Assembly: GCA_927798255.1 (NCBI GenBank)
Contig: CAKMMH010000019.1
Coordinates: 1-15,657 of the forward strand
Length of the DNA: 15,657 nt
Source of the DNA: an uncultured bacterium
GTDB lineage: Bacteria > Bdellovibrionota_C > UBA2361 > CAKMMH01
Reading direction: 5' to 3'
The translations under genes and the position numbers were made by a program. This document shows, one piece after another, positions 1,423-15,657 of this stretch (its first letter is position 1; each line of letters opens with the position of its first letter). The notes under the pieces were generated by a model. That model saw only the letters and a program-made list of their open reading frames with translations. It was not told where the DNA came from and searched no databases.

Positions 1423-1752
1423 ATGTCAGTAAATTTAGAAAATCTTTTAAAGTCAATCGATAAATTAGAAGAAGCTATATATTCAGCAGAATTAAAATTA
1501 TCACAAGGCAAGAAAAATAGTAAATATGCATCTCGTTTTGATTCATACAGAAGAATTTGTGATATGCAAAGAAGATTTTCTGAAGAAATTTTTTATTTAA
1601 AAGCTATAAACAATAAAGATGAAATAGTTAGGAGAGTTGGCTTGATAAATGGGTTATCTGCAATGATTCTTGATGATATAAGAAACATCACCACGCAAAA
1701 TGAACAAATTAGAAATAAATATTCTTACCAAGATACATACAATATGAATTAA
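1423..1752 (+). CDS. Unrecognised 109-residue helical protein
   Basis: I do not recognise this family. The protein is hydrophilic, without a signal peptide or membrane segment, and is predicted by eye to be almost entirely helical. Helices cover about residues 3-27 (NLENLLKSIDKLEEA), 38-62 and 66-98, with a polar tail ending YQDTYNMN. A basic patch, YASRFDSYRRICDMQRRF, sits in the middle. The start is well supported by AAAGGTGG six bases before the ATG. It stands between the divergent FlhB-family gene and the ABC-like set, and a hairpin followed by a T-run lies between it and the next gene. The size and helical character would fit a small chaperone or adaptor, but nothing in the sequence proves this. 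Confidence 0.75.
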   Translation: MSVNLENLLKSIDKLEEAIYSAELKLSQGKKNSKYASRFDSYRRICDMQRRFSEEIFYLKAINNKDEIVRRVGLINGLSAMILDDIRNITTQNEQIRNKYSYQDTYNMN

Positions 1753-1862: not shown

Positions 1863-3080
1863 ATGAAAGAATTTAAGAGAGTTATATATTCAATAATAGT
1901 TATATTCGTCTTAGAAGCTTTACTTATGGCTCGTAGTAGAGCTAAATCAAATTTAGATATTCCGAGTGATTCACAAATAAACGAATTAAAGGTCGACCTT
2001 GATAAAAACAATGATAAAATTAATCAAAAAATACAAAAACGTATAGCAAGAAGAAAAGAGTCTGTAAAAAATAAAATAAAAATATCAAAAGATGAAATAA
2101 TTAATAATAAAATAGCTGATATTGAAAAGATTTCTTTTACACCTACTATAACTAAAACTAATATAGCTAACAAAGATTCTCTAGATAAGGATACTAATAT
2201 TTACTTTGTTAGCTTTCAAGATAATTTTATAGTTAATAAAATTAGTGATAACATTAAAAAATCTCTAAATCTTGATAAATTATTTAAAACTAACGTTAAA
2301 ACATTTGTATTAAATTATGATTTTAATAATTTACAAGAAATAATAAGTGAAATTCAGTCGGATACTAATAATAAGTATGTGGTAACTTTTTCGCAGTTAA
2401 TATTTGAAAAATTCTCAAATATCTTTAAAGATACTTATTTAATACCAACTCTTTTGTTAAGTTCTAATAAATTAAGTGATAATTCAAAGTTAAGTATAAG
2501 TAAGAAGACTTTTGGAGTACGTGCGCCCCTTGCTTTTACATCAATTTCAAATGTAATAAAGAAATCGTTTGCTGATAAGCAAATAATTATTTTATATTCT
2601 AGTTTAGAACAAGAAAGTGCATATGGTTATAAGAAATTAATAGAATCATTTAAAAAATATCATATAAATAATTACATAAAGTATAATGTAAAGAATAAAA
2701 GTGATATTGAAAATTTGCAAGTATTAGAAAACGATGCAGAGAAAAGTGTTGTGCTTCTTATAACTTCAAATATATTCTTAAATAATAATCAAAAGGTTAA
2801 AGAAATATTTGAAAAAATCAAAATGCCTATTATTGCTTTTTCAAAAACAGAATTAGAAAAATTTAATGGTGTTTTATCTCTTGGTGTGAATTATACTGTT
2901 CTTGGTTCTCAAACAGGAGAAATAATTAATAATTTATTAAAAAATAATAATTTTAAACCAAGAGAAAGTATTGCATTAGCTAAGTTATATGAACTTACAG
3001 TTAATTTAAAACATGCAAATGAAATTGAATTTAATATTCCTCAGGATTTAATAAAAAATGCTAATTCAGTAATTAAATAA
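1863..3080 (+). CDS. ABC transporter substrate-binding protein, TrpX-like (ABC_sub_bind family)
   Basis: The protein has 405 residues from the ATG at 1863. A TTG at 1854 would add three residues, but it lies inside the T-run, so ATG is preferred. The N-terminus (KEFKR, then hydrophobic residues 7-23) is a signal peptide or membrane anchor without a lipobox cysteine. A charged, lysine-rich linker follows to about residue 105. From about residue 110 (IYFVSFQDN) the two-lobed binding fold of the ABC_sub_bind family follows. It is clearest at the end, where MPIIAFSKTELEKF, LGVNYTVLGSQTGEIINNLL and a close of the form NIPQDLIKNANSVI match TrpX-type proteins. Relatives bind small ligands such as tryptophan; the ligand here is unknown. 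The gene leads a set with the STAS and permease genes. No ribosome binding site is visible. Confidence 0.8.
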   Translation: MKEFKRVIYSIIVIFVLEALLMARSRAKSNLDIPSDSQINELKVDLDKNNDKINQKIQKRIARRKESVKNKIKISKDEIINNKIADIEKISFTPTITKTNIANKDSLDKDTNIYFVSFQDNFIVNKISDNIKKSLNLDKLFKTNVKTFVLNYDFNNLQEIISEIQSDTNNKYVVTFSQLIFEKFSNIFKDTYLIPTLLLSSNKLSDNSKLSISKKTFGVRAPLAFTSISNVIKKSFADKQIIILYSSLEQESAYGYKKLIESFKKYHINNYIKYNVKNKSDIENLQVLENDAEKSVVLLITSNIFLNNNQKVKEIFEKIKMPIIAFSKTELEKFNGVLSLGVNYTVLGSQTGEIINNLLKNNNFKPRESIALAKLYELTVNLKHANEIEFNIPQDLIKNANSVIK

Positions 3081-3094
3081 TTAATGGTGTACTA

Positions 3095-4345
3095 ATGAAA
3101 GTTGATACTAATGTAAACAATGAAAAAGAATTTGTGATTGCAATTGGTGGAAGATTAGACGCAAATACTGCAAAAGATCTAAATAATATTTTATCTAAGA
3201 CTTTAGATAATGGATATACTAACGTTTTAATTGATTGTGCAAATTTAAAAGAAATATCCTCTGCAGGATTAGATTTTTTACTTAAAAATCATAATAAATT
3301 TAATGAATTTAATGGTTCACTTGTACTTAAAAATACTTCATATGAGCTTGAGAAAATATTAAATAAAGAAAATGCTAGTTCAATAATTTATGGAAAGACC
3401 TCATCTCATAGCGTTGTTGTCGACAAACCTAATAAATTTATAAAAGATGATAATACTATATATAAGTATTATAAGGCATTATATCATACACCAAATACTA
3501 CACTTGAAGCTTTTGGAAATCCCGATAAATTTGAATTTCAAGAATTTGCTCCTACAGACCCTTTTTTGCTCCAATACTCTCCTAGCACAATTGGATTAGG
3601 ACTTGGCTCTTTATCATATGATATAAAGACATCGCATGATAGTTTTGGGGAATTTTTGAATATAGGAAATTATACTTTTCATATGCCTCCTAAAGATAAT
3701 TGTTACCCAGATTATCAAAAAGTAAATAATATTCATGAAAATTCTATTTATAAAATTCACACATTATATGCTTTAAGAGCATATAATGATTTTTGTAATG
3801 TTATTAATTTTAGCAATGAAGATAATAATTCACTTAATTTATCAGATCTATTAAAAGTCCTTATGAATCAAACAAAATCTAAGGCTATTTCTTTTGTTAT
3901 TTGTGGAAAAATTAAAAATTTTTGTGGAGTAAAATTAACAAAAGCTATTTTAGCCAGTAAAAATAACAATATTTTTAGTATAAATAATTTTAATAATAAT
4001 TTTAAAATTATAACACAAGATGATTACCATAATCATATAGCTATCTTAGTTGGATTTGCGATAAATAATACAAATAAAATTATAAGTAAATTTTTAAAAC
4101 CATACTATGGTTCTAATCCATCGCTTTTCACACATATACATAGTTTAATTTTTAATTATCAACCTTTAAAGTTTTCGTACAAAGATTCAGTGAATGATTT
4201 GATTGAAGCATTCATGAGGGATAATAAAGCACTTGATTTGTGTCATATTATAAATGACCCTATAAACAATAATGAAACATCATTTGTCGATGGCATATGC
4301 TACTTTAATTCTTTAAATGAATTTAAAACGGGAGAATTTAAATAA
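3095..4345 (+). CDS. STAS-domain protein with a large unrecognised C-terminal region
   Basis: Residues 1 to about 108 form a STAS domain, the fold of anti-sigma-factor antagonists and some transporter regulatory domains. GGRLDANTAKDL (18-29) and VLIDCANLKEISSAGLDFLL (44-63) are typical, and Ser56 before AGL is the position phosphorylated in SpoIIAA/RsbV-type proteins. The remaining 300 or so residues (about 115-416) belong to no family I recognise. They include GLGLGSLSYD (167-176), a histidine/aspartate-rich stretch DDYHNHIAILVGFAI and a late FVDGICYF. There is no signal peptide or clear membrane segment, so a cytoplasmic location is inferred. The gene starts 14 bases after the binding-protein gene, with GGTG before its ATG, and its TAA abuts the permease ATG. 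This arrangement implies one transcript and a shared function. Confidence 0.8.
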   Translation: MKVDTNVNNEKEFVIAIGGRLDANTAKDLNNILSKTLDNGYTNVLIDCANLKEISSAGLDFLLKNHNKFNEFNGSLVLKNTSYELEKILNKENASSIIYGKTSSHSVVVDKPNKFIKDDNTIYKYYKALYHTPNTTLEAFGNPDKFEFQEFAPTDPFLLQYSPSTIGLGLGSLSYDIKTSHDSFGEFLNIGNYTFHMPPKDNCYPDYQKVNNIHENSIYKIHTLYALRAYNDFCNVINFSNEDNNSLNLSDLLKVLMNQTKSKAISFVICGKIKNFCGVKLTKAILASKNNNIFSINNFNNNFKIITQDDYHNHIAILVGFAINNTNKIISKFLKPYYGSNPSLFTHIHSLIFNYQPLKFSYKDSVNDLIEAFMRDNKALDLCHIINDPINNNETSFVDGICYFNSLNEFKTGEFK

Positions 4346-5230
4346 ATGAGTATTATATTAAATAGTATAAATAGCGGATTAATCTTATCGTTAATTGCGA
4401 TATCTTTTTATGTTTGTAGCTCGAAATTAAAATTTGCTAATATCGCATTAGGTTCATGCTTTTGTGTTTCCGGTTTTTTATCAGCATTACTATTTAACTT
4501 CACTGGTTCATTATTTTTGGCAGTCATTATTCCATTTTTATTTAATATTATATTAGCAATTTGTAATATTATATTTATAAAACTTAAAATCGATAAATTT
4601 CTGTCTAATATTTTAATTTTAGGTTTATCAAATATTATCATAAACTATATATCAATTAATCCGAGATTGTTTGAAAATAGCATTTCGGTTAATTATAGTT
4701 TAAATGAATTTAGTTTATTCTCTATTTTAGTCATAATTAATATTTTTGCTTTTTTTACATTTTCATTACTAATAAAAAAAGACAATTCTTTTATTAATTC
4801 TTTATACATATTAAGTTTGGCAAATATTTTTTCAGGGTTTGCAGGACTTTTTAATGTTATTAAAAGCACTGTCTTAAATTTTGACTATGTCACACCAGTA
4901 ATTATTTCAATCACAGCTTTTTTAGTTTCAAGACTATTTTTAGGAAAATATCAGAAAATATCAACGAAATTGTTACTTTTGATAACGTCATCAATTATAG
5001 TTAGTCAATTGTATGAATTATTAATTGTTTTTAAATTTGATTTTATAACTATTAATGCTTTATATATTTTTTTAGCAGTAGTTATAGAAGTTTATTTAAA
5101 ATTACACTATTCTAGATTTTCAATATACGATGACATTTCATTATTAGATAATATAACTAGCACTTCAGAAAGTAAAAAATCTTTTACTAGTATAGATTTT
5201 GTTAATGCAATTAAATCTCAATATATTTAA
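4346..5230 (+). CDS. ABC transporter permease, TrpY / branched-chain (LivH) type
   Basis: This 294-residue protein is very hydrophobic, with about eight membrane segments spread over residues 5-250 and a polar cytoplasmic tail (about 252-294). The start, SGLILSLIAISFYVCSSKLKFANIALGS, follows the pattern of LivH/TrpY permeases (GLxxALxALGxYLTxRxLxFAxxALGS). The glycine positions are only partly kept, so the protein is diverged. It is expected to form the membrane channel for the binding protein encoded first in this set. Its ATG directly follows the TAA of the STAS gene; GGGAG lies 11 bases before it, inside the upstream gene. No gene for the ATP-hydrolysing subunit follows: the stop is immediately adjacent to that of the convergent peptidase gene. 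Confidence 0.8.
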   Translation: MSIILNSINSGLILSLIAISFYVCSSKLKFANIALGSCFCVSGFLSALLFNFTGSLFLAVIIPFLFNIILAICNIIFIKLKIDKFLSNILILGLSNIIINYISINPRLFENSISVNYSLNEFSLFSILVIINIFAFFTFSLLIKKDNSFINSLYILSLANIFSGFAGLFNVIKSTVLNFDYVTPVIISITAFLVSRLFLGKYQKISTKLLLLITSSIIVSQLYELLIVFKFDFITINALYIFLAVVIEVYLKLHYSRFSIYDDISLLDNITSTSESKKSFTSIDFVNAIKSQYI

Positions 5231-15163: not shown

Positions 15164-15657
15164 TTACTGCATTATAAAATCTTTAAAATAAACTGAAACT
15201 ACCACACTTTCTTCAAGGCCTAAAGCTTCATTTATAGCATCTACTAGCTCTTCTTTTAATGCTTCCTTACCCTCTTGTGTTAAAAGTTCGTTTGGTGTTT
15301 TGTACGACAAAGTAGAAATTATTGCATCTCTAATCATCGCGTCACGTTTTTCAAAAAGTTTAGGAAGAGATTTTGAATCAACTCCACCTTCTCCACCTTT
15401 TTCTTCTTTATCTTTTTCATCACCGCCAGAAAGTACGCTTGGATCATATTCAACTAAAATTGTAGTACGTAAAAAGTTTGAAGCTTTAGCTAAGTTTACA
15501 ACAAACGTATCAAATTCATAAACTTCAAGTTTAGCATTTTCTTCACTTACCTCAGTGCTTGCCTCTTTTTTTGCACCAGCATCATCTTTTTTACCTAAGA
15601 CAAAAAATGCTACTGCCCCACCAATCACAGCTAATAAAACGACTATAATTAATATTA
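15164..15657 (-). CDS. fliL: Flagellar basal-body protein FliL (N-terminus beyond the window)
   Basis: FliL is an inner-membrane protein that surrounds the flagellar stator and helps it work under load. The frame stays open to the right edge, so the true start is outside; the GTG at 15628 lies inside the membrane segment. Visible residues begin ILIIVVLLAVIGGAVAFFVLGKK, the single membrane span. A charged linker follows, then the periplasmic FliL domain: FDTFVVNLAKASNFLRTTI, KRDAMIRDAIISTLSYKT and the family's ending VVSVYFKDFIMQ. A Gly/Glu/Lys-rich insertion (GGDEKDKEEKGGEGG) interrupts the domain. In many bacteria motA/motB and fliM/fliN lie beside fliL, so stator genes may lie just beyond this edge. 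Confidence 0.88.
   Translation of the reverse strand, partial: ILIIVVLLAVIGGAVAFFVLGKKDDAGAKKEASTEVSEENAKLEVYEFDTFVVNLAKASNFLRTTILVEYDPSVLSGGDEKDKEEKGGEGGVDSKSLPKLFEKRDAMIRDAIISTLSYKTPNELLTQEGKEALKEELVDAINEALGLEESVVVSVYFKDFIMQ

What the first reader, a model, noticed from the sequence alone, without database searches (positions are those of the whole stretch)
1863..5230. ABC-like set with a STAS-domain protein and no ATPase gene
TrpXYZ-type transporters normally have a binding protein, a permease and an ATPase. Here the binding protein and permease flank a STAS-domain protein, joined by a 14-base gap and then by directly abutting stop and start codons. The neighbours on both sides are unrelated, so the ATPase is absent from the locus. 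STAS domains are phosphorylation switches, so the set could be a ligand sensor in which the former transporter signals through STAS, or a transporter gated by STAS that uses an ATPase encoded elsewhere. I know of no described system with this composition.
Basis: partly seen in the sequence, partly recalled or inferred. Interest (0 to 1): 0.8.

Follow-up and report, generated by a model that had tools for sequence, protein, structure and literature searches.

The report
ATPase-less ABC-type set with STAS protein
Three adjacent bacterial genes look like a nutrient pump without its motor gene, whose membrane protein is also shortened where the motor would grip it, and a signalling-type protein sits in between, so the set may now be a sensor or gated channel rather than a pump.

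Summary
In detail: a TrpX-type binding protein (1863-3080), a 416-aa protein with an N-terminal STAS domain (3095-4345) and a BPD_transp_2-like permease (4346-5230) form a tight + strand unit with no ABC ATPase on the contig. Added here: (1) The permease is the genome's only PF02653 match. Its first half is securely homologous to TrpY/LivH permeases, but the region of the ATPase-coupling stretch is 15-21 residues shorter than in TrpY in all eight alignments, and the motif is absent; where the gap lies varies. (2) None of 25 ABC-ATPase loci scored is TrpZ-like (best 104 bits; true TrpZ 319-430). (3) Partner switching is weakened: no SpoIIE phosphatase, only two weak HATPase_c_2 matches, and the other STAS locus lacks the kinase gene that lies near it in 23 of 27 same-order relatives. 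(4) The STAS protein carries 316 residues without significant matches. No orthologue was found: STAS and binding protein in 44 relatives, permease in 27 relatives and (by six peptide patterns) GTDB contigs, all three in plasmids. Best reading, unproven: a transporter-derived membrane sensor or gate with the STAS protein as cytoplasmic partner.

The parts
1863..3080 (+). TrpX/ABC_sub_bind-type binding protein, 405 aa; hydrophobic segment 7-25, then (by reading) a charged linker; C-lobe recognisable at 238-404
3081..3094 (+). 14-nt gap
3095..4345 (+). STAS-domain protein, 416 aa: STAS about 1-100 with S56 at the phospho-acceptor position; residues 101-416 without significant matches
4346..5230 (+). 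BPD_transp_2/TrpY-like membrane protein, 294 aa; shortened in the coupling region after hydrophobic segment 125-143; 43 residues after the last hydrophobic segment
4775..4792 (+). codons 144-149 (KKDNSF): the only polar residues between two hydrophobic stretches where TrpY permeases carry about 28 residues with the coupling motif (lengths by reading)
1423..1752 (+). unassigned 109-aa ORF, 110 nt upstream on the same strand; may or may not belong to the unit

Best explanation
The set derives from a TrpXYZ-type importer that has stopped being an ATP-driven pump. The periplasmic binding protein still has a recognisable C-lobe. The membrane protein keeps the permease fold, at least in its first half, but is shortened in the cytoplasmic region through which such permeases grip their ATPase, and no matching ATPase was found. 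The STAS protein, encoded between them, takes the ATPase's place as cytoplasmic partner. Ligand-loaded binding protein would change the state of the membrane protein, which is read by the STAS protein (through the short loops or the 43-residue tail) and passed on by its unknown 316-residue C-terminal part. Shown: gene content, order and spacing; shortened coupling region without the motif; no TrpZ-type ATPase among those scored and no classical partner-switch enzymes found in the 88.6% complete genome. Inferred: complex formation, topology, direction of signalling, ligand, output. That the stretch is the ATPase-docking coupling helix is recalled.
For: Tight packing with abutting stop and start. 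PF02653 has one match in the genome. The permease's first half is homologous to TrpY: 19.6 bits, 0 of 2000 local shuffles as good; 33.7 bits, 0 of 2000, with a combined BPD profile. In all eight alignments (four MAFFT modes, with 24 and with 6 other permeases) 49-55 residues stand opposite 70 of the Ilyobacter TrpY around the motif, and the motif pattern is absent. Predicted helices 118-142 and 148-175 are joined by 5 residues (low confidence). 25 ABC loci scored with a TrpZ profile: best 104.1 bits, against 318.6-430.4 for six TrpZ in leave-one-out. Four annotated trpXYZ-like operons do carry an ATPase.
Against: Only one genome has the set, so nothing shows that it is maintained. The permease's second half has no significant similarity to TrpY (126 of 2000 shuffles as good), so placing the gap rests on the first half and on hydropathy. 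Only 3 of 8 alignments empty the motif columns (4 of 20 filled); 5 of 8 fill 12-15 of 20, with gaps on both sides. The 18 non-TrpY permeases were picked by the motif. The three proteins are rich in AT-encoded residues (FYMINK 0.45-0.47, eight reference genes 0.27-0.40), which also fits relaxed constraint. No kinase or phosphatase for the STAS domain was found. About 11% of the genome is missing. Both single-sequence models are poor.
Confidence: 0.37

Rival explanations
1. ATP-independent, STAS-gated channel or carrier. The membrane protein moves a solute passively or with an ion, helped by the binding protein as in TRAP-type systems, and the STAS protein gates it as the STAS tail may do in SulP/SLC26 carriers.
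For: Same shortened coupling region and no cognate ATPase; retained binding protein. STAS domains of SLC26/SulP transporters are mentioned in PMC7367683 section 9; the TRAP analogy and the gating role are recalled.
Against: ABC permease folds are not known to me as passive carriers; the substrate path cannot be assessed because the second half is unrecognisable.
Confidence: 0.2
2. An ordinary transporter that uses an ATPase encoded elsewhere, with the STAS domain binding that ATPase as MlaB binds MlaF. One candidate is the ATPase on contig C101, which has no permease beside it.
For: STAS binding to an ABC ATPase is established for MlaFB (PMC7367683 abstract and sections 9, 11). The C101 ATPase (L096:1123-1869) has no permease next to it on the contig; its best NCBIfam match is PhnC, 143 bits, and MlaF scores 132 bits, both under cut-off. 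In 5 of 8 alignments part of the coupling columns is filled. About 11% of the genome is missing.
Against: The coupling region is shortened in all eight alignments and has no motif. The C101 ATPase starts 11 nt downstream of what reads as a histidine kinase-receiver gene, so it has its own operon context. None of the 25 ABC loci scored is TrpZ-like. MlaB model NF033618 scores 13.4 bits against a cut-off of 90.
Confidence: 0.15
3. A decaying transporter remnant with a chance STAS neighbour, without function as a set.
For: Strong divergence; no orthologues found; TrpX-type N-lobe not recognisable; residues encoded by AT-rich codons are frequent (FYMINK 0.45-0.47, eight reference genes 0.27-0.40); a kinase gene lost at another STAS locus.
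Against: Three intact ORFs of 294-416 aa in 27% G+C DNA, where open frames should decay fast; packing kept; per-codon synonymous score 0.30-0.31, inside the 0.28-0.38 of the eight genes that served as its own reference.
Confidence: 0.16
4. Classical partner switching: binding protein and permease control an RsbW/SpoIIE-like cycle on the STAS serine and thereby a sigma factor.
For: Serine at the acceptor position; the best NCBIfam match of the STAS protein is the anti-sigma antagonist model TIGR00377 (43.8 bits, under its cut-off of 53.45).
Against: SpoIIE: no match in the own genome, 35 of 45 genomes of the class (own included) have one. HATPase_c_2: two weak matches in the own genome, best E 5.6e-4 (their rows were not shown). 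The kinase gene is missing from the STAS locus on C111.
Confidence: 0.07

Closest known systems
TrpXYZ-type ABC importers (ABC_sub_bind binding protein, single BPD_transp_2 permease, TrpZ ATPase)
   Same: Binding-protein C-lobe, first half of permease, single permease gene, binding protein before permease
   Different: No ATPase found, coupling region shortened and without motif, STAS gene between binding protein and permease, N-lobe unrecognisable
MlaFEDB with STAS subunit MlaB
   Same: STAS protein associated with an ABC-type membrane set (PMC7367683)
   Different: Permease family differs, none of the ten window proteins scanned is an Mla protein, STAS protein is 416 aa against a 94-position MlaB model that it does not meet
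SulP/SLC26 carriers with STAS tail
   Same: Membrane transporter plus STAS
   Different: STAS is on a separate protein; the membrane protein matches BPD_transp_2 and no other Pfam family at E up to 1; SulP carriers work without a binding protein (recalled)
Partner-switching modules (SpoIIAA/RsbV, RsbW, SpoIIE)
   Same: STAS domain and acceptor-position serine
   Different: No phosphatase and only weak kinase-family matches in this genome

Membership tests
TrpXYZ ABC importer | ABC_sub_bind/TrpX binding protein | tested here: met
   PF04392 45.7 bits over cut-off 25.9 with the N-terminus removed; as TrpX proper, NF041285 50.3 bits is far under its equivalog cut-off of 390
TrpXYZ ABC importer | BPD_transp_2 permease | tested here: inconclusive
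   26.2 bits against cut-off 26.8, first half only; 0 of 2000 shuffles reach the first-half score; second half not significant, 126 of 2000
TrpXYZ ABC importer | Cytoplasmic coupling stretch that docks the ATPase | tested here: not met
   Region 15-21 residues shorter than in Ilyobacter TrpY in 8 of 8 alignments; motif columns 4 of 20 filled in 3 alignments, 12-15 of 20 in 5; motif pattern absent
TrpXYZ ABC importer | Cognate TrpZ ATPase, at the locus or elsewhere | tested here: not met
   Own genome, 88.55% complete: 25 of 32 PF00005 matches scored as loci, best 104.1 bits; true TrpZ 318.6-430.4
Partner-switching module | STAS domain with phosphorylatable Ser/Thr | tested here: met
   S56 aligns with the serine after the aspartate of the SpoIIAA motif; that this is the acceptor is recalled
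Partner-switching module | RsbW/SpoIIAB-type kinase | tested here: not met
   Own genome: two PF13581 matches, best E 5.6e-4, rows not shown; listed matches near E 4e-5 have about 24 bits, so under the cut-off of 27.4 by comparison; 36 of 45 genomes have one over cut-off
Partner-switching module | SpoIIE/RsbU phosphatase | tested here: not met
   0 matches in own genome; 35 of 45 genomes have one
Mla (MlaB) | MlaB-type STAS next to MlaF/MlaE | tested here: not met
   NF033618 13.4 bits against 90; no PF00005 match on this contig
SulP/SLC26 | Sulfate-transporter membrane domain | tested here: not met
   Not among Pfam matches of the permease at E up to 1
Any of the above | Physical interaction of STAS protein with permease | not testable with these tools
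   Single-sequence models too poor (mean pLDDT 37.9 and 46.9)

The most novel reading that the evidence does not exclude
An ABC importer converted into a transmembrane receptor: the ATPase gene and the docking part of the permease were lost together, and a STAS-plus-unknown-domain protein was recruited to the vacant cytoplasmic face as signal output, in a lineage that has also lost its partner-switching kinase and phosphatase.
Probability: 0.28. Interest if true: 0.75.

Novelty: new variant of a known kind. Interest (0 to 1): 0.5.

Why it matters
ABC importers are defined by their ATPase. A set in which the motor is gone and its docking part is cut down, while binding protein and membrane part stay as intact genes, would show how a pump can become a receptor or gate. 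It would also give a STAS domain a partner outside SulP carriers, MlaF and sigma-factor control. As it stands this is a single-genome case with an unproved function.

Tried and rejected
Orthologue searches without result: P0001 in 76 genomes besides the own one (eight matches in six genomes, all on the STAS domain only) and in 44 relatives of the phylum; P0002 in 27 same-order relatives; P0003 in 44 relatives of the class; P0002 in genome contigs through six peptide patterns (one LivH of a Treponema MAG, 25% identity, inside what reads as a branched-chain operon); plasmids with P0002, P0001, P0003 and the C-terminal part of P0001 (one search gave four STAS-only matches); IMG/VR with P0001 only. 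NF041285 in the class gave four other genomes (G035, G032 and two weak ones); none has a PF02653 match on that contig, and the G035 place is a run of binding-protein pieces that reaches the contig end.

A weak STAS match on C9 (16.6 bits) was rejected: it lies antisense to an ORF that reads as ScpB. The hairpin upstream of 1863 folds no better than shuffles. Promoter-like sites are fewer than in shuffles (26 against a mean of 37.4). Rfam lists only the tRNA. PHROGs and PADLOC gave nothing useful. Fold searches were not run because both models are low in confidence. A recalled impression that the C-terminal part of the STAS protein belongs to a widespread unnamed family could not be tested and is not used.

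Selections to know: the 18 BPD permeases were picked by the coupling motif out of 121 ORFs, so their having it proves nothing; the six TrpY were picked by gene context, from seven of 21 plasmid hits that I opened. One search scored 13 ATPases, all 25 fetched loci; seven of the 32 PF00005 matches had no locus and were not scored (E 2.9e-4 or weaker singly). I lowered the best explanation from 0.40 to 0.37 and the novel case from 0.30 to 0.28, and raised the shared-ATPase rival from 0.13 to 0.15 and the decay rival from 0.15 to 0.16 for this and for the residue composition.
Full report
WHAT IS THERE. The window is the whole of contig 19 of a 1.77 Mb, 240-contig genome, 88.55% complete. Its phylum is held as 45 genomes, the own one included, all of one class; no other genome of its family appears among them. 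On the + strand lie 1863-3080 (405 aa), 3095-4345 (416 aa) and 4346-5230 (294 aa). ORFs of this length are not expected by chance in this composition. The per-codon synonymous score (0.30-0.31) lies inside the range of the eight genes used as its reference (0.28-0.38), but the proteins are richer in residues with AT-rich codons (FYMINK 0.45-0.47 against 0.27-0.40).

THE BINDING PROTEIN. NCBIfam TrpX matches residues 242-403, counted from a TTG three codons upstream. Pfam ABC_sub_bind is over its cut-off when the first 89 residues are left out (45.7 bits). A profile of seven TrpX-like proteins matches 238-404 only (37.2 bits), including GVNYTVLGSQTGEI, which stands opposite GFNYYDVGKQTGEI of the Rhizobium protein. 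The N-lobe is not recognisable. Ahead of it come one hydrophobic segment (7-25) and a charged linker. I read this as a periplasmic, possibly membrane-anchored protein (inference).

THE STAS PROTEIN. Residues 13-102 match STAS PF01740, and the single-sequence model reaches moderate confidence only there. S56 aligns with the serine after the aspartate in the SpoIIAA motif. That this serine is the phospho-acceptor is recalled; PMC7367683 section 11 states that a structurally equivalent Ser or Thr is phosphorylated in SpoIIAA, RsbR and RsbS. Residues 101-416 give nothing significant: Pfam at E up to 10 (Stv 18.6 bits under cut-off 24.2), NCBIfam, PDB sequences (one chance match at E 0.24), plasmids; the whole protein has no PHROGs or PADLOC match. 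This part is three quarters of the protein and probably holds its output.

THE PERMEASE. PF02653 matches residues 3-138 over profile 1-138, 26.2 bits against a cut-off of 26.8. It is the only PF02653 match in the genome; 33 of 45 genomes of the class, own included, have one. To compare with TrpY I opened seven of 21 plasmid hits of a TrpX-like query. Four annotated ones have the order binding protein, permease, ATPase; two unannotated ones were read as ORFs; one had binding proteins without permease. A profile of the six TrpY first halves scores 19.6 bits on residues 1-145, and none of 2000 block shuffles that keep the hydropathy pattern reaches it (best 13.4). The combined BPD profile scores 33.7 (0 of 2000). 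The second half is not significant: 2.6 bits, reached by 126 of 2000.

THE SHORTENED COUPLING REGION. In the six TrpY a hydrophobic segment is followed by a stretch such as GLAMRATGANARMARAQGVD. In the window's protein the Pfam match runs to residue 138, inside hydrophobic segment 125-143, and what follows is KKDNSF and then INSLYILSLANIFSGFAGLF. I ran eight alignments: four MAFFT modes with 24 other permeases and four with the six TrpY. In all eight, 49-55 residues stand opposite 70 of the Ilyobacter TrpY around the motif, a loss of 15-21. Where the gap falls differs: in three alignments only 4 of the 20 motif columns are filled, in five 12-15 are filled, mostly by hydrophobic residues plus KKDNSF, with gaps on both sides. 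The motif pattern is absent. The single-sequence model shows helices 118-142 and 148-175 with 5 residues between (mean pLDDT 46.9, so weak support). That this stretch is the ATPase-docking coupling helix in BPD_transp_2 permeases is recalled knowledge, not a result of a call.

NO COGNATE ATPASE FOUND. PF00005 gives 32 matches in the genome, none on this contig. All 25 fetched loci were scored against a profile of six TrpZ: 22 of 25 match below E 1e-3, the best with 104.1 bits. TrpZ proteins left out of the profile score 318.6-430.4. By reading, the 13 ATPases look like MlaF types, LptB, LolD, FtsE, MacB, a CysA/PotA type, an exporter, a Wzt type, SufC, an ABC-2 type and ABC-F; four were checked against NCBIfam and none passed a cut-off among the rows shown. 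Two of the three MlaF-type ones sit beside genes that read as MlaE and MlaD. A cognate ATPase in the missing 11% of the genome cannot be excluded.

NO CLASSICAL PARTNER SWITCH FOUND. SpoIIE (PF07228) has no match in the own genome and a match in 35 of 45 genomes of the class. HATPase_c_2 (PF13581) has two matches in the own genome, best E 5.6e-4, whose rows were not shown; 36 of 45 genomes have one over cut-off. In 23 of 27 same-order relatives a STAS match and an HATPase_c_2 match lie within 1.3 kb (recounted; the list was cut, so this is a lower bound). In the two that I read, the order is HDOD, STAS, receiver-HATPase, zinc-ribbon protein (names by reading). The window's genome has HDOD, STAS and zinc-ribbon on contig 111 with 17 nt between the last two and no gene between them. 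So the kinase is gone from this place by a real difference, not by an assembly gap; it could still sit in the missing part of the genome.

MECHANISM. The lack of an ATPase and the shortened docking region, together with intact and tightly packed genes, fit a set selected for something other than ATP-driven import. I favour a sensor or gate in which the STAS protein is the cytoplasmic partner (0.37), then an ATP-independent STAS-gated channel or carrier (0.2), decay (0.16), a transporter sharing an ATPase (0.15) and partner switching (0.07). A STAS domain acting on an ABC machine has a precedent in MlaB binding MlaF; [quoted passage not shown]).

LIMITS. The genome-contig search was made with the permease only, reaches close relatives only and may leave out the genome itself.

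Noticed in passing
own genome contig C111 (L092:2079-2758): The STAS/receiver-HATPase/zinc-ribbon locus read in two relatives lacks the receiver-HATPase gene here: STAS and zinc-ribbon genes are 17 nt apart.
   Followed up: partly
486-1256, - strand: FlhB/SctU-type export protein ends at residue 256 and Pfam Bac_export_2 covers profile 3-256 of 335; the part where the self-cleaving NPTH motif would lie (recalled) is missing and the bases just downstream show no continuation.
   Followed up: partly
L096:1123-1869 (own genome contig C101): An ABC ATPase without a permease beside it, 11 nt downstream of what reads as a histidine kinase-receiver gene.
   Followed up: partly
3762-3788: Inverted repeat of 11-12 pairs inside the STAS gene, listed as terminator-like on both strands; 2 sites found against a shuffle mean of 0.6.
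   Followed up: no
1423-1752: Unassigned 109-aa ORF preceded by AAAGGTGGTG, 110 nt upstream of the set.
   Followed up: partly
L091:4864-7076 (G035): TrpX-like binding-protein pieces in adjacent or overlapping frames, without a permease before the contig end.
   Followed up: no
15164-15655, - strand: ORF that reads as FliL at the contig end; with FlhB at the other end this suggests a flagellated organism.
   Followed up: no
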